From Corynebacterium diphtheriae (lineage in GTDB: Bacteria; Actinomycetota; Actinomycetes; Mycobacteriales; Mycobacteriaceae): 64,000 nucleotides of DNA. Location of the stretch: NCBI RefSeq assembly GCF_001457455.1, contig NZ_LN831026.1, positions 1,302,001 to 1,366,000 of the forward strand, read 5' to 3'. This document shows, piece by piece, positions 47,364 through 56,495 of this stretch. The position numbers and the translations under genes are program-made. Position 1 is the stretch's first letter. Each line of letters opens with the position of its first letter. The notes under the pieces were generated by a model, which had not been told where the DNA came from, did not search any database, and was given only the letters and a program-made list of their open reading frames with translations.

Positions 47364-48623
47364 CTATTCAGTCGACTCATCGTCCGTGAGGAGGTCAACA
47401 ACCGCTTGGGCAAAAGCAGCAACTACCGGAAATCTCGTATCCGACTCTCGTTGCGCAAATCGATTCAATGCTTCAAATGTCTCATAGAGATCCTGTCGAA
47501 GCAAAGCAACCAAATCTGCATCCTCACTCGTTTCTGGAACAAACGTTCCCAGTAGAATATCGCCAGTAGCAGCAATTTCTTTAACGATTTCCTCTACATC
47601 AAATGCAGTCGCTTTTTCGGTACCTATTTTATGAAAAAGCTCTTCATAGGCTTCACTGCTAGAACCTAAATACATCATCGTTACGCTTGAAAAAGCCCAG
47701 CCGATTAGTGCAGTTAAAATCCGCGCGTGCAAACGGGGCGTATTCCGTACGTTGGGCCACATATCCCCAACCTGTTGTACCCATGATTCGATGAAAATAT
47801 CTGCTTCAGCGTCCGAGATGGGACGAGCAAAAAGATACTGAGGAAAACCTGCGATAACACTAGCAACATCAAAGGCCGCATCACGGAATCCGGCCCACTC
47901 ATAATCTAAAAACTCGGTCCGGTCAGCCACAATAATGTTGTCTGGAGACAAATCAAATGGCGTAAAGGCTCGATGTTGACCGGTAACTAACCTTCGCATT
48001 GCTTCTTGTGCAAAGCTTTTCACTACATCCGGAACCGTAATCCCGGCTTGTTCCACAAGTGTGATGCCCACGCCGATATTAAGACGCAGTAACCTTTCTC
48101 TGAAACCATGCATAGGCTGCACTTCTGGATGTTTGACTAACATCCTATGGAGCAAAATATTAAAATCTTGTTCCTTGGCAGCTGTTCCTACATGCAGCTT
48201 TCCGATAGCTTCACCCAAATTGCGCAAAATCCCAATTCGCACATCATTTTCATGGCGCTCAAGGAGTTCGGCGAATGTATCTCCGTCTCCGGAATCGGAA
48301 ATCACCAGGAGGTGCTGTTCTACGTCATAGGCTAAGAGGACAGGACCTGGTCGAACATCAGCATTCAGAGATGTTGTGAACTGATAAGAAACTACTTCAC
48401 GCATCAGCGTGGATTCGTCGATAAGCCTTCCAGTGGGCGGGATATATTTCACAACCACTGAACGATTGGGAAAAAATGGGGACGACGCGACGCGAGCTCT
48501 CAATACGACTGCTGCCCCTGATCCTGCTAAGCGATCCCAATCAGTCAATGATTGCGAACCACCATAACGCTTAGTCAAAAGTTCTTCAGCAGCAGAAATA
48601 ATCTGGCTGTGCGATTCAAACAT
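47364..48623 (-). CDS. Phosphotransferase-fold (APH/choline-kinase-like) protein
   Basis: The 419-residue product has a kinase-like fold: an N-lobe with ATP-site features (AVVLRARVASS, SVVVKYIPP with a Lys), a catalytic loop AFTPFDLSPDNIIVAD in place of HGDLHPGN, and LDYEWAGFRDAAFDVAS in place of the IDWE/DFG segment. The catalytic Asp and the metal-binding Asn and Asp are present although the leading His is not. The substrate is unknown; I see no reason to call it a resistance gene. ATG at 48623 is chosen; the frame extends 30 codons upstream. It lies between aspS and rarA, 36 bases ahead of rarA. Confidence 0.75.
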   Translation of the reverse strand: MFESHSQIISAAEELLTKRYGGSQSLTDWDRLAGSGAAVVLRARVASSPFFPNRSVVVKYIPPTGRLIDESTLMREVVSYQFTTSLNADVRPGPVLLAYDVEQHLLVISDSGDGDTFAELLERHENDVRIGILRNLGEAIGKLHVGTAAKEQDFNILLHRMLVKHPEVQPMHGFRERLLRLNIGVGITLVEQAGITVPDVVKSFAQEAMRRLVTGQHRAFTPFDLSPDNIIVADRTEFLDYEWAGFRDAAFDVASVIAGFPQYLFARPISDAEADIFIESWVQQVGDMWPNVRNTPRLHARILTALIGWAFSSVTMMYLGSSSEAYEELFHKIGTEKATAFDVEEIVKEIAATGDILLGTFVPETSEDADLVALLRQDLYETFEALNRFAQRESDTRFPVVAAFAQAVVDLLTDDESTE

Positions 48624-48748
48624 CACGTCGGTTTCTTCCTTTTCATTAAGCGATACCGCTTTCGCGAAAATCGGGACCCCATTAGCATCATTATGACGCC
48701 AACAAAGCCCCAACTTCTAGTGCCTAGCCCACTGTGAGCTTTGCATTG

Positions 48749-50775: not shown

Positions 50776-51660
50776 ATGACTTTTCGTGGCGGTATAGAAA
50801 AACCAGAAAATCTTGCCAGATCGGGCGGCGGTGGCGGCGGACGCATCGCTGCAGGAGGCGGCATAGGAACATTACTGCTCGTAGGATTATTCCTACTCAT
50901 GGGCGGCAATCCATCAGACTTGGGTCAAATTATTGGCTCTGATTCTGCGCAAAATCAACAACAAGCGCGCTCTGGGACTTTGGAACATTGCAAGACAACG
51001 GATGATGCAAATGCACATGCGGACTGTCGTGTCGAATTTACTGCTATTTCGGTTAATCAAATGTGGCAAGAACAACTTCAAAAGCAAGCTGGAATTGCGT
51101 TCGAAAAACCCAACATCACAGTATTCTCACAAGCGGTTTCCACAGGTTGCGGCACCGCCTCATCTGCTACCGGCCCTTTTTATTGCCCCCGCGATCGCAC
51201 CGCCTATTTTGATGTTAGCTTCTTTGATTCCCTACAACGTTACGGAGGCGAAAATACTCCGTTCGCGCAGGAATACATTGTGGCACATGAGATCGGGCAT
51301 CATATTCAAAACCTAGAAGGCACACTAGGACTATCTGATTATAATGATCCCGGTCCTAATTCGAATGCAGTCAAGATTGAGTTACAGGCCGACTGCTATG
51401 CGGGTGTCTGGGGGCATTACGCAGATAAAGGGGATAATGCCTTCCTTGAACCGATCACCAAACAACAAGTCAATGATGCTATAACGGCGGCTCGCGCAGT
51501 TGGCGATGACAACATCCAAGAACGCGCAACCGGAAGAGTCAACACCGAATCGTTTACTCACGGTTCTTCCGATCAGAGACAACGAGCATTCCTCGCAGGC
51601 TATAATTTAGGGAAAATGAGCAGCTGCGATACTCTCGATCGACACGTGTACAAAGACTAA
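50776..51660 (+). CDS. YpfJ-type neutral zinc metalloprotease
   Basis: A 294-residue putative membrane-anchored metalloprotease (YpfJ/zinc_ZnMcY). It has a Gly-rich linker (about residues 17-29), a transmembrane segment (about 30-43, IGTLLLVGLFLLMG), then an extracytoplasmic domain with Cys pairs and the zinc motif AHEIGHHIQNL (H171, E172, H175). The downstream KIELQADCYAGVWGH holds the third ligand. The substrate is unknown. ATG at 50776 has no ribosome-binding site upstream and may be leaderless. It is divergent from aspS and converges on the helicase gene at a shared hairpin. Confidence 0.88.
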   Translation: MTFRGGIEKPENLARSGGGGGGRIAAGGGIGTLLLVGLFLLMGGNPSDLGQIIGSDSAQNQQQARSGTLEHCKTTDDANAHADCRVEFTAISVNQMWQEQLQKQAGIAFEKPNITVFSQAVSTGCGTASSATGPFYCPRDRTAYFDVSFFDSLQRYGGENTPFAQEYIVAHEIGHHIQNLEGTLGLSDYNDPGPNSNAVKIELQADCYAGVWGHYADKGDNAFLEPITKQQVNDAITAARAVGDDNIQERATGRVNTESFTHGSSDQRQRAFLAGYNLGKMSSCDTLDRHVYKD

Positions 51661-51740: not shown

Positions 51741-53399
51741 TTAGTTATCAATCTGTAAGCGATCGTGCTCTAGCTCAATAATATTACGGGCTAGCGCTCC
51801 TTCTGAGACATCTACGGCGTCAAAAACCTCTGCTGCTTCAGCATCCCGAGCATAGTTATCAAATACTGCCCTCTTATGCTCCAATAATTCGGTAAGTCTT
51901 TCGTCGACAGTATCGGCGCCAAAAAGTCGATAAACTGTGACAGGATCTCGTTGGCCCATTCGGTGTGTGCGTGCAATAGCTTGATCTACCAGCGTGGGCT
52001 TAACTTGCGCTTCCGTAAATATAACCACACTGGCTTTTTGAATATTTAGCCCTACACCTCCTGCAACAATTTGCAGCAATAACACATGTCTTCCAGTGTT
52101 TCCCAACTCATCAATCAGCTGTTGTCGTCGTTCAGGCGGCACATCTCCTGTGATTGACCCCGCAACGTATTCACCCAAATCTTTTTCAATACGCTCGAGC
52201 ACACTGCGAAAGTAGCTAAATATAATTACGTTCTTTCCAACACTTTCTGCCTCTTTCACAATGTCGATTAAGCGTTCCATTTTCGCACAATCCGGCCGAG
52301 CTGCTAGCATTGCTACTCTTCGCATCAGCATCCAATTACGTTCATGTACTGCTTGTCTGTATAGATGTTCATCCTCCGCACTGAGCTCGACCCATTCTGT
52401 GTGATCGATTTTTTCAGGAAGCTCGTCAAGGACATCCCCTTGATTTCTCCGGAGATAAAGATGCGCGATATGAGCTTTAAATGCTGAGGCTAATCGCGGT
52501 GCGCTTATTGCACAATGCGAATCAAGATATGAAACTAACGTACAAAATTCTTCTATTCTATTTTCCAATGGAGTACCGCTGAGAAGAAGCACATATTCCG
52601 ATTCTGCAATAATCCGCGAGACCGCTCGCGATCGTTTAGCCTCAGGATTTTTTATGTAGTGAGCCTCATCGACGATGACAACCGTGGCCCCTAGAAGCTG
52701 CATGGTTCTCGCGCCATCATATGTAACGATAAGCGCCCCAGCGGTATCATTCCATTGCGCAACTGCTTTTTGTTTGTTTTCTCCATGCGCAATCTGAACA
52801 GGAATGTTGCAGAATTTTTCCCATTCTCGAGCCCAGTTAGTCATCAGTGACGCTGGGACAATTATCAATATCTTTACTGGGTTTTCAGAAGATTTTTCAG
52901 CAGTAACATGGGCAGCTGCTGCGATAGCTTGCACAGTTTTACCAAGGCCCATCTCATCGCCAAGAATTACTTTGCGCTGAACTATAACGAATTTTGCGCC
53001 GAAACTTTGATAACCACGCAGAAAGGCGTCTCGTAGTAAAGAAGTATTGAGCTTTAGTGCGCGAATACGTTCTAACGTTTCGGACGATAAACCGCTCTGA
53101 CTATAGGGCGTTTGGTCATTTCCACGAATGGCAGACCATAGCGACTGGTAATGCGCTGGGCGTTCACAGTAATCCTTCCAAATGTCTACCGAGCCTTGCC
53201 CCTCAGAGAGTAAGTCTGGAATAGATAAAGCTAAGTTTGCCCAAGAAATATCATCAATAAACTGCAAATATGCAGTGTTGTGCCCATTTGACCCCTTGCT
53301 GTAGATCACAAAATACGCCGGTGGAATAGACCTCCATAACGCTTTTTCATGTGTGATTACTGGTTGCAAGTACCGTTCAAGGCGATCAATGCGATCCAA
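51741..53399 (-). CDS. SNF2-type helicase; C-terminal part of a split gene
   Basis: The 552-residue product is a complete SF2 motor: Walker A LGDEMGLGKTVQAIA (about residues 146-160), IVPASLMTNWAREW, the DEAH box VDEAHYIKN, LLSGTPLENRIEEF, and the C-terminal half QIVAGGVGLNIQKA with DQAIARTHRMGQRDPVTVYRL (motif VI). The start is uncertain: the frame opens with TTG at 53399, without a ribosome-binding site. It is in the same frame as 53406-54410 and separated from it by only TAA, GAC and GAA, so the two appear to be one gene (about 890 codons) broken by a nonsense codon. Function, probably DNA translocation or repair, is inferred from the family. Confidence 0.85.
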   Translation of the reverse strand: MDRIDRLERYLQPVITHEKALWRSIPPAYFVIYSKGSNGHNTAYLQFIDDISWANLALSIPDLLSEGQGSVDIWKDYCERPAHYQSLWSAIRGNDQTPYSQSGLSSETLERIRALKLNTSLLRDAFLRGYQSFGAKFVIVQRKVILGDEMGLGKTVQAIAAAAHVTAEKSSENPVKILIIVPASLMTNWAREWEKFCNIPVQIAHGENKQKAVAQWNDTAGALIVTYDGARTMQLLGATVVIVDEAHYIKNPEAKRSRAVSRIIAESEYVLLLSGTPLENRIEEFCTLVSYLDSHCAISAPRLASAFKAHIAHLYLRRNQGDVLDELPEKIDHTEWVELSAEDEHLYRQAVHERNWMLMRRVAMLAARPDCAKMERLIDIVKEAESVGKNVIIFSYFRSVLERIEKDLGEYVAGSITGDVPPERRQQLIDELGNTGRHVLLLQIVAGGVGLNIQKASVVIFTEAQVKPTLVDQAIARTHRMGQRDPVTVYRLFGADTVDERLTELLEHKRAVFDNYARDAEAAEVFDAVDVSEGALARNIIELEHDRLQIDN

Positions 53400-53405
53400 T
53401 TCGTC

Positions 53406-54410
53406 TTATAGCGCTTCCCTACTCCGACCATAGTGATAGAGAATATTAAGAAGCGCCTCGAGTTCCGTGCTCTGCTCTGAACCTAAAGTGGAAAGCGGTT
53501 GGGCTAACGCCTCCGAATAGAGGGTCTGAGCTGCAGCTTTTACCCGCTTTGCGGTTTGTTGTCCGACGCCCGGAATTTGTTCCAAGTCTTCAACTGAACG
53601 AGAAATTATTTCTGCCACAGAAGTTATTCCCTGACGCTTTATCGCCGTGACACTGACGCGTTCGCTGGTCACTTGGCTTAGAGAATCGATGCTAAGGCTA
53701 CTGAGAAGTGCGAGCGCACGGCATTGAATAATTTTGTTTTCTGCTTGAAGCGCTTTGCGTTGTAGCGTCCACGGTGAAAGTGGGTGCGCCCGTAGTTGTT
53801 CGCACAGGAGAATTGCAGGCCTTACGTATTCTTTGCTCAGATTATCAATACAGACTTCCGGAAGCTGCATTGCAGACGCAAGGCTTGATCGCACAGCTTT
53901 GCCGTAGGGAGAGTCTTGGTTTTCTACCAGAAAATGATGAACTCCTGATTTATAAGCTGATTCAGCCCTATCATATCGGCGAAGGTATTCAGTGACACGG
54001 GATAGCTGCACTTGAAGTTCTGGATTCGCGAGTAGGTTTTCAAGCTCAGTTGCAGCGGATTCGAATTGCTGATTCGCTGTCGAAGAAACCCGGCGCGTAA
54101 ATGTGCTCCATATGCCAATTTTAGTTTTGTGTAGAAGGTCTACGATGCCTGCCGTTGACTCGATAAATTTTTCAAGGATTTCCGTAACTTCAATATGATC
54201 TTCGGAGAATTCTTCGTGGGTGAATAGATGCGGGGGCCAAGATATAGCGGTTTGAGGTACGACCCATACATCGCTGATTTTTCCATGAGTGTTGAACCTT
54301 GCTGGTTCATGTGGTTCTAGTAGCGAGTTCAGAAGTAAATGAGCACGCTGTGCGACTTCCCTAAGGTACGTTCCTTGGGAGCGCAGCGTGCTCATACGAA
54401 GTGGGTCCAT
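53406..54410 (-). CDS. Helix-hairpin-helix protein; N-terminal part of a split SNF2 helicase
   Basis: The 334-residue product is mostly helical and ends with a helix-hairpin-helix motif, LEQIPGVGQQTAKRVKAAAQTLYSEAL (about residues 280-306), a DNA-contact element. I recognise no other domain; the first 270 residues are unassigned. The stop at 53406-53408 is in frame with the helicase that follows (EAL-stop-DELDRIDRLERYL), and reading through gives a smooth helical join. ATG at 54410; ATG at 54395 is an alternative. The upstream unit is the YhgE gene. Confidence 0.75.
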   Translation of the reverse strand: MDPLRMSTLRSQGTYLREVAQRAHLLLNSLLEPHEPARFNTHGKISDVWVVPQTAISWPPHLFTHEEFSEDHIEVTEILEKFIESTAGIVDLLHKTKIGIWSTFTRRVSSTANQQFESAATELENLLANPELQVQLSRVTEYLRRYDRAESAYKSGVHHFLVENQDSPYGKAVRSSLASAMQLPEVCIDNLSKEYVRPAILLCEQLRAHPLSPWTLQRKALQAENKIIQCRALALLSSLSIDSLSQVTSERVSVTAIKRQGITSVAEIISRSVEDLEQIPGVGQQTAKRVKAAAQTLYSEALAQPLSTLGSEQSTELEALLNILYHYGRSREAL

Positions 54411-54473: not shown

Positions 54474-56495
54474 TTATACCGCTACTTCTGGATGGAAATC
54501 TTTCATCTTCATTTGTCGTTCTCGCATTGCGGCAATTGTAGAAAATAGTAGGAAAAGTGCACCGATGAAGATCAAGACGCTAACACCTTGTACTGCTCGA
54601 TGGTCTAAAGCTACATCTGTTGGGTAAATCGCTTGCCGAAGGATATTTACTGAGTATGTCATCGGATCGAAGGTATGGAACCAGCGCAGTGGTGCTGGTT
54701 GTGTTTCCGGTGGGTATAGTCCTCCGGAAGATACGATCTGTAGCGACATAAATGCGATACACAATACGCGTCCGACAGTAGAGCCGAATACTGTGTTGAG
54801 TCCTTGGGTTATCGCCATGAAGCACATGGATGTCAGGCACATCGCTGCCCACAGAAGGAATTCGTTGTGAGCTTGAAGCCCAATGGCATAGCGTTGCACT
54901 AAGAACATAATGGTTGCTTGGCAAAATCCAACGATAACTGCAGGTATATAGGAGGCTAGAACAACGCGGAATGGTGTTACGCCTGAATCAACTACACGTC
55001 GCTGTAGTGGACGCATGAGCATGAAGGTTACGGTGCCGCCCATGAATAGTCCCAGTGCGATAAACATAGGTGCGAGCCCTAATCCAAAAAGCGAGAGGGA
55101 ATCTCTGGCAACGTTTTCTGCTACTGGTGTAGATACGTTTCGCGCTGAGTCTGCGATCGTGTCATCAGGGAATTGCGGAATTTTGTCTTTGCTCTCTCCT
55201 AGCTTGAGGGATAGTTCGGATGCTCCTTCATCAAGACGAACTAATCCTGAGCTAAGTTGCGATGCACCCACCGTCAGCTGTTGAGATCCTGCTGAAAGTT
55301 TGGTCGTGCCATCGGCTAGGGTCTTGGTACCTATAACAAGCTTTTCGGAGCCATCAGACAACTGATGCAACCCAGTGGAAAGTTTTTGAGCACCTTTCGT
55401 TGCTGAATTTATACCTGCGCGATATTGTGCCGTGGGGTCGGAAAGCTGTCGGTGTATTTCCGATGCCCCGTTTCGCAGTTTCGAAAGTTGAGTCATCATA
55501 TCCGATTGAGGACCGATTCCGGCTGTGTTGATGGAGTTAATAATGCCGTCGGCGCTGTTAGCGAGGTCGATCGCTTGGGGTATGCCTGTGGCACGTAGTT
55601 GGGCACTCAGATTGACCAGTGGAACTGTCAATTGCGCTTGGGCATCGCTCGCTTGTTGTGCGACGCCCACGAGCTTATCGACGCCCGCAGATACTTGACC
55701 CGCGCCGTTTCCGAGGGTATCGGTGGCTGCGTTGAGTTTTGTTAGTCCGTCGGCGAGTGCGTCAGCACCGTTACTCGCAGTATGAATTCCTTGGTCAAGT
55801 TGGCCTGCGCCGTCGTAAAGCTTGTGTGCTCCGTCGTTTGCTTGTTGGAGTCCATTGTTAAGCTGTGTTGATCCGTCTGCGAGCTTGTCGGCACCATCAT
55901 GAGCTTTATGGGAGCCGTCTGCGAGTTGGCCGGCGCCGTCTGCTGCAGCGCCAAGGCCTTGGCCGATGGTATTAAACCCGACAAGGAGTTGGTTTGCTAC
56001 TTGTGATCCAAGATTCTCATTTACTGCGGCGAGAACGCGTCCTACAACTTGGTTGCCCAACATTGTAGCTAAAAAGCCATTGGCGTTGTTGTAAACAGCA
56101 TTAAGTTTTGCTTGATGCGGCTGGGGATCTTTTACGCTAGTGGCGGCTTGAGAAAAATCTGTGGGGAATTCGATAGCGAAGTAGTAGGTGCCGTCAGCAA
56201 TTCCTTTGCGAGCTTGGTCGGCGGAGACCTCTATAAATTTTGCTTGTTGTTGATCGACAAGACTATGGGTGATCTGTTCACCTGCGTTGATGGTCTTGCC
56301 TTCTTTGGTCACTCCGGTATCTGAGTTGACTACTGCTACGGGCAATTTGTTGAGATGTCCGATTGGATCCCAGTAAGACCAAACAAATAACCCGCCGAAG
56401 AGCAAGGGCATAAGCATGATAACGACAATTGCTATGGGAGGTAGTTTTCCATGTCCGAATCTGCGGAATTCCGTACCGATATGAAATAGGTTCAT
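54474..56495 (-). CDS. YhgE/Pip-type membrane protein
   Basis: The 673-residue protein resembles the YhgE/Pip (phage infection protein) family with an ABC-2-type C-terminus. One transmembrane helix is near 20-40 (AIVVIMLMPLLFGGLFVWSY); a large extracytoplasmic domain contains about ten imperfect copies of DGAxxLxDGxxxL between residues 180 and 430 (for example DGAGQLADGSHKAHDGADKLADG); five or six more helices are near 475-660. The ATPase gene ends 18 bases before this start, so it is the likely partner. Transport substrate unknown; lipids, drugs or a cell-wall component are possible. Confidence 0.85.
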   Translation of the reverse strand: MNLFHIGTEFRRFGHGKLPPIAIVVIMLMPLLFGGLFVWSYWDPIGHLNKLPVAVVNSDTGVTKEGKTINAGEQITHSLVDQQQAKFIEVSADQARKGIADGTYYFAIEFPTDFSQAATSVKDPQPHQAKLNAVYNNANGFLATMLGNQVVGRVLAAVNENLGSQVANQLLVGFNTIGQGLGAAADGAGQLADGSHKAHDGADKLADGSTQLNNGLQQANDGAHKLYDGAGQLDQGIHTASNGADALADGLTKLNAATDTLGNGAGQVSAGVDKLVGVAQQASDAQAQLTVPLVNLSAQLRATGIPQAIDLANSADGIINSINTAGIGPQSDMMTQLSKLRNGASEIHRQLSDPTAQYRAGINSATKGAQKLSTGLHQLSDGSEKLVIGTKTLADGTTKLSAGSQQLTVGASQLSSGLVRLDEGASELSLKLGESKDKIPQFPDDTIADSARNVSTPVAENVARDSLSLFGLGLAPMFIALGLFMGGTVTFMLMRPLQRRVVDSGVTPFRVVLASYIPAVIVGFCQATIMFLVQRYAIGLQAHNEFLLWAAMCLTSMCFMAITQGLNTVFGSTVGRVLCIAFMSLQIVSSGGLYPPETQPAPLRWFHTFDPMTYSVNILRQAIYPTDVALDHRAVQGVSVLIFIGALFLLFSTIAAMRERQMKMKDFHPEVAV

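What the first reader, a model, noticed from the sequence alone, without database searches (positions are those of the whole stretch)
51741..54410. SNF2-type helicase gene split by a single in-frame TAA
The HhH protein (53406-54410) and the helicase (51741-53399) are on the same strand and in exactly the same frame. They are separated only by TAA-GAC-GAA. Read through, the junction is EAL-x-DELDRIDRLERYL, a continuous helical stretch, and gives one protein of about 890 residues with an HhH DNA-binding part ahead of an intact SNF2 motor. The second half has only a TTG start without a ribosome-binding site. This suggests a recent nonsense mutation (or a sequencing error), programmed read-through, or a real two-gene split.
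Basis: partly seen in the sequence, partly recalled or inferred. Interest (0 to 1): 0.7.

Follow-up and report, generated by a model that had tools for sequence, protein, structure and literature searches.

The report
Helicase gene broken by stop codon
A gene for a DNA-handling motor protein, which relatives encode as one protein, is cut in two here by a single stop codon; this is most likely an ordinary broken copy in one strain of the diphtheria bacterium.

Summary
On the minus strand a 334-aa frame with a helix-hairpin-helix (HhH) domain (54410-53406) ends in TAA. In the same frame, two codons later, follows a 552-aa SNF2 motor with only a TTG start and no good ribosome-binding site. The geometry alone proves little: the window has 8 other single stops between long same-frame open stretches. 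Relatives decide it. A natural 889-aa C. diphtheriae protein matches both halves end to end (97% and 98%), with exactly one TAA in the window's copy. In 50 other Corynebacterium genomes, 51 places span the junction and none has a stop there. I read it as a nonsense allele (pseudogene) of one strain or lineage; a sequence error is the main unexcluded alternative. The stop falls in the turn between two predicted helices, so a working two-part protein is not excluded, though nothing supports one. Read-through has no support. Near relatives hold copies broken elsewhere (C. silvaticum; a 217-aa fragment 90% identical), so the gene seems dispensable. Interest is low.

The parts
53406..54410 (-). N-terminal piece, 334 aa: helical region and HhH domain (PF14520 at residues 254-295); matches residues 1-334 of the natural 889-aa protein P0001 at 97%
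53406..53408 (-). in-frame TAA stop, the only stop inside the match to P0001
53400..53405 (-). two codons between the stop and the TTG; they and the stop correspond to the turn between two predicted helices of P0001
51741..53399 (-). C-terminal piece, 552 aa from TTG: SNF2 motor (PF00176, PF00271); matches residues 338-889 of P0001 at 98%
50776..51660 (+). YpfJ-type zinc metallopeptidase gene, convergent neighbour, conserved beside the helicase gene in relatives
54474..56495 (-). YhgE/Pip family membrane protein gene, upstream neighbour, conserved beside the helicase gene in G251, G177, G185 and G120

Best explanation
This is a nonsense allele of one HhH-SNF2 gene. The usual form is a single protein of about 890 aa: an N-terminal helical and HhH DNA-binding part followed by a SNF2-type ATP-driven double-stranded-DNA translocase. 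In this strain or lineage a change inside the gene made one sense codon TAA. The expected product is a 334-aa N-terminal fragment without a motor. The motor half stays open in frame but would be made only if ribosomes re-start at the nearby TTG. Shown: the stop, the spanning homologues, the synteny, and the presence of copies in one frame. Inferred: that the change is real DNA rather than a read error, that it is recent, and that it abolishes function.
For: P0001, 889 aa, 'SNF2-related protein [Corynebacterium diphtheriae]', stands for a cluster of 470 sequences and aligns without gaps to both pieces: 324 of 334 and 542 of 552 residues identical. In the own genome P0001 finds one place, residues 1-889, 98%, stops inside: 1 TAA. 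In the genus 73 of 242 genomes, own included, have a match at E <= 1e-60. 50 other genomes hold 51 places whose match spans the junction; 50 of the 51 have no stop inside the match, and the exception (G120) has a TAG at residue 219, not at the junction. Of 68 named loci from other genomes, 53 carry HhH and SNF2 similarity in one frame, one of them (L076, C. silvaticum) broken later in the motor. The gene lies in the same block (rarA, kinase-like, aspS, ypfJ, SNF2, YhgE, ABC, TetR-like, sdaA) in G251, G177 and G185, and in that block without YhgE and ABC in G137. There is no excess of changes after the stop: 10 of 552 residues against 10 of 334 before it, as expected if the break is young.
Against: No second sequence of this very strain could be read, so an assembly or read error is not excluded. 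The motor half is as well preserved as the half before the stop, and the break lies in a loop, which would also fit a still-working split protein. The 470-member cluster may contain fragments, since its members are not shown. P0001 itself has residues seen in 0 of 59 relatives at three conserved positions (452, 589, 805), so being in one frame does not prove that it works.
Confidence: 0.8

Rival explanations
1. Sequencing or assembly error: the gene is in one frame in the living strain.
For: The only near-identical full-length protein listed, P0001, is in one frame; only one defect separates the window from it.
Against: The genome is a single contig, 99.99% complete. The change is an in-frame stop without any length change, whereas long-read errors are typically length changes (recalled, not tested). 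No homopolymer of 5 or more lies within 53350-53460.
Confidence: 0.1
2. Working two-part protein: ribosomes that stop at TAA re-start at the TTG 6 bases further on, and the two pieces pair as a split enzyme.
For: Only 6 bases lie between stop and TTG. The cut lies in the turn of a helical hairpin (helices 315-333 and 338-358), where 6 of 59 homologues have a gap and the alignment holds a 3-column insertion. The motor half shows no extra damage.
Against: No separate protein like the window's halves was listed: no 334-aa-like piece, no 552-aa-like piece among the best 120 (a 90% clustering could hide them). No good ribosome-binding site. None of the 51 junction-spanning places in other genomes has this split.
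Confidence: 0.08
3. Programmed read-through of the TAA.
For: Both halves are in frame and conserved.
Against: The stop is absent at this point from all 51 junction-spanning places in 50 other genomes and from P0001, so nothing suggests a conserved recoding site.
Confidence: 0.02

Closest known systems
Single-chain HhH-SNF2 proteins of Corynebacterium ('SNF2-related protein', 'DEAD/DEAH box helicase'; P0001, P0004, P0006 and others)
   Same: Same two parts in the same order; 97-98% identical to the C. diphtheriae form P0001; P0004 (C. pseudotuberculosis, 920 aa) and P0006 (C. ulcerans, 919 aa) match both halves at 31-32% and 54-55%
   Different: The window's copy has one in-frame TAA between the two parts; Pfam's HhH model is listed for P0001 but not for P0004 and P0006, whose N-terminal half is recognised only by its similarity to ORF1
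Other broken copies: C. silvaticum (L076; G185, a contig of the same length) and P0121 (217 aa, source without a name)
   Same: Same gene interrupted; same locus in G185
   Different: Broken elsewhere: G185/L076 changes frame between residues 629 and 644 in the motor; P0121 departs after residue 213
Anti-phage SNF2 proteins DrmD (DISARM) and DpdE (PADLOC models PDLC02627, PDLC02852)
   Same: P0001 scores 415 bits against each, over residues 233-868 and 217-874
   Different: NCBIfam's DrmD (NF038318) and DpdE models stay far below their cut-offs (71 of 950, 85 of 500 bits); the adjoining genes are housekeeping, membrane or transport genes, not DISARM or Dpd partners as far as names them

Membership tests
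HhH-SNF2 single-chain helicase of Corynebacterium (as an interrupted member) | HhH part ahead of a SNF2 motor in the same frame | tested here: met
HhH-SNF2 single-chain helicase of Corynebacterium (as an interrupted member) | one uninterrupted reading frame | tested here: not met
   1 TAA inside the match to P0001; hence filed as a broken allele, not as a working member
HhH-SNF2 single-chain helicase of Corynebacterium (as an interrupted member) | position between ypfJ and the YhgE gene | tested here: met
   Of 9 stretches compared, 4 have this order (G251, G177, G185, G120); G137 and G239 have ypfJ but no YhgE match; G176 has ypfJ but no SNF2; G253 and G199 (4,283-base contig) show no neighbour
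Pseudogene / nonsense allele | homologue in the same species that spans the stop in one frame | tested here: met
   P0001, named C. diphtheriae by its source; that the window is C. diphtheriae is inferred from this
Pseudogene / nonsense allele | loss of function or of full-length product | not testable with these tools
   needs protein or phenotype data
Programmed stop-codon read-through | stop conserved in relatives | tested here: not met
   0 of 51 junction-spanning places in 50 other genomes have a stop at the junction
DISARM DrmD / Dpd DpdE defence helicase | score above NCBIfam's curated cut-off, and partner genes alongside | tested here: not met
   71 of 950 and 85 of 500 bits; adjoining genes include rarA, aspS, ypfJ, YhgE/Pip, sdaA, hisS
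NCBIfam pilus_reg_Snf2 / helic_SCO1167 | score above the curated cut-off | tested here: not met
   P0001 177 of 1100 and 159 of 1200 bits

The most novel reading that the evidence does not exclude
The C. diphtheriae complex is losing this HhH-SNF2 motor repeatedly and independently, by different breaks in different lineages, and in the window's strain the break lies in a hairpin turn, so that a split, re-initiated two-part motor may persist as a transitional form.
Probability: 0.08. Interest if true: 0.35.

Novelty: new member of a known kind. Interest (0 to 1): 0.15.

Why it matters
It shows how a single stop codon leaves two gene-like frames that annotation may list as an 'HhH protein' and a 'helicase', whereas they are one broken gene. 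If the repeated breaks in near relatives are real, the gene is dispensable there, which is modest evidence about a bacterial SNF2 family whose role I could not establish here.

Tried and rejected
Programmed read-through: rejected for lack of any stop at this point in relatives. Real two-gene split: none of the junction-spanning relatives has it. Defence helicase: PADLOC scores are high, but NCBIfam cut-offs are missed and the named neighbours are housekeeping or membrane genes. Geometry as proof: rejected, since 8 other single stops in the window separate long same-frame stretches.

Literature: in what I saw of searches (listings with starts of abstracts) nothing was about this gene. In PMC13419099 I saw passages only: the SNF2 there is human SMARCA2 and the HhH mentions are LigA and DnaE. 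In PMC1794413 and PMC5055667 I saw one passage each: C. glutamicum SNF2 genes in tables, not shown to be this gene. In PMC6203263 and PMC7694903 I saw passages only, read for the type strain. That the genome length of 2,463,666 bases fits type strain NCTC 11397 is recalled; no call confirms it.

Rows dropped before counting: of 73 genomes with a match, the own genome and 22 others, whose match begins at residue 394 or later and so does not reach the junction, were left out. Among those 22, G253 shows two pieces in different frames and G199 ends with its contig. The 50 genomes counted keep G120 and G185, both broken elsewhere. Of 68 named loci, 14 gave no HhH hit and one (L053) had it in another frame.

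Not tested: whether the stop occurs in other C. diphtheriae strains, because the collections hold one genome per species and the members of the 470-sequence cluster are not shown. 60 of the 121 proteins went into alignment A1.

Full report
What is there. The window is part of a single-contig genome of 2,463,666 bases. The best full-length match to the gene is named C. diphtheriae by its source, and the closest held genomes of other species are only about 72% identical in DNA over the neighbouring ypfJ gene, so I take the window to be C. diphtheriae (inference). On the minus strand, ORF1 (54410-53406, 334 aa) ends in TAA; GAC GAA and a TTG follow, and ORF2 (53399-51741, 552 aa) continues in the same frame. 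ORF1 has an HhH domain; ORF2 has the SNF2 and Helicase_C domains, above Pfam's cut-offs.

Is it more than chance? The geometry alone is not. The window holds 9 single stops, this one included, between same-frame open stretches of at least 140 aa. Four of the other 8 were scanned on both sides: ribBA/ribH and aroB/aroQ are ordinary gene pairs, and two more matched a family on one side only. The evidence has to come from relatives.

Relatives. P0001 is an 889-aa natural protein, representative of a cluster of 470 sequences. It aligns without gaps to ORF1 (324 of 334 identical, its residues 1-334) and to ORF2 (542 of 552, its residues 338-889). Searched against the own genome it gives one place, whole length, 98%, with one TAA inside. 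In the genus, 73 of 242 genomes (own included) match at E <= 1e-60. In 50 other genomes, 51 places span the junction; none has a stop there. One of them (G120) has a TAG at residue 219, and one (G185) changes frame between residues 629 and 644. Of 68 named loci of other genomes, 53 have HhH and SNF2 similarity in one frame; one of these is the C. silvaticum locus L076, where the frame breaks later, in the motor.

Place. The order rarA, kinase-like gene, aspS, ypfJ, SNF2, YhgE, ABC, TetR-like, sdaA is the same in G251, G177 and G185. In the stretches fetched, G137 has no YhgE or ABC match, and G176 has no SNF2, YhgE, ABC or sdaA match. So this looks like an old resident gene rather than a recent import (inference). 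It diverges faster than its neighbours, chiefly in the HhH part: ORF1 32% and ORF2 53% identical to G251, against 58-93% for the nine other genes compared, hisS in part only.

Where the stop falls. AlphaFold2 on P0001 with 59 homologues gave mean pLDDT 88.9 and pTM 0.78. In the alignment the columns on either side have 0-2 gaps in 59, while the stop position has 6 and is preceded by a 3-column insertion. Foldseek finds eukaryotic SNF2 motors (Mot1, SMARCAD1, ISW1, INO80 and others) as the nearest solved structures.

How it would work. The one-frame protein is, by family, an ATP-driven double-stranded-DNA translocase with an HhH DNA-binding part (family knowledge, not tested here). With the stop, translation should give the 334-aa part without a motor. 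The TTG 6 bases after the stop has no good ribosome-binding site, but neither has ORF1's ATG, while the two genes upstream do, so weak re-initiation cannot be excluded. The 20 differences between window and P0001 are 10 before and 10 after the stop: no sign of extra decay in the motor half, as expected for a young break, and equally for a split protein still in use. Results against a simple picture: P0001 itself carries residues found in 0 of 59 relatives at three conserved places (452, 589, 805), and the window carries one at 815, where the others have A, V or S, so the one-frame representative may not be fully functional either.

Verdict. A nonsense allele of one strain or lineage, or less likely a sequence error, in a gene that is also broken elsewhere among near relatives (C. 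silvaticum; P0121). This is ordinary; interest is low.

Noticed in passing
L076 4885-7648; L127 6407-9116 (G185): In C. silvaticum KL0182 (L076) and in G185, whose contig has the same length, the same helicase gene is in two frames (659 + 283 aa): a separate break, in the motor part.
   Followed up: partly
P0121 (217 aa): A 90% identical N-terminal fragment (13 sequences) that departs after residue 213: probably a further truncated allele from a lineage close to the window's.
   Followed up: partly
51741-54410: The gene diverges faster than its neighbours: 32% (HhH part) and 53% (motor) identity to G251 against 58-93% for nine neighbours.
   Followed up: no
P0001 residues 452, 589, 805: The full-length C. 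diphtheriae representative has unusual residues at three conserved positions where the window keeps the common residue.
   Followed up: no
L130 (G120): An orthologue in another Corynebacterium with an in-frame TAG at residue 219.
   Followed up: no
L129 4842-6246 (G253): A more distant SNF2 gene that matches in two overlapping pieces of different frame; possibly another broken copy.
   Followed up: no
L132 (G176): A relative with the same aspS-ypfJ neighbourhood but no SNF2 or YhgE match in the stretch fetched.
   Followed up: no
47364-48713: A 449-aa frame (labelled kinase-like here by eye) between rarA and aspS, conserved in relatives, without any Pfam match at 1e-5 or NCBIfam match at 1e-10.
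   Followed up: no
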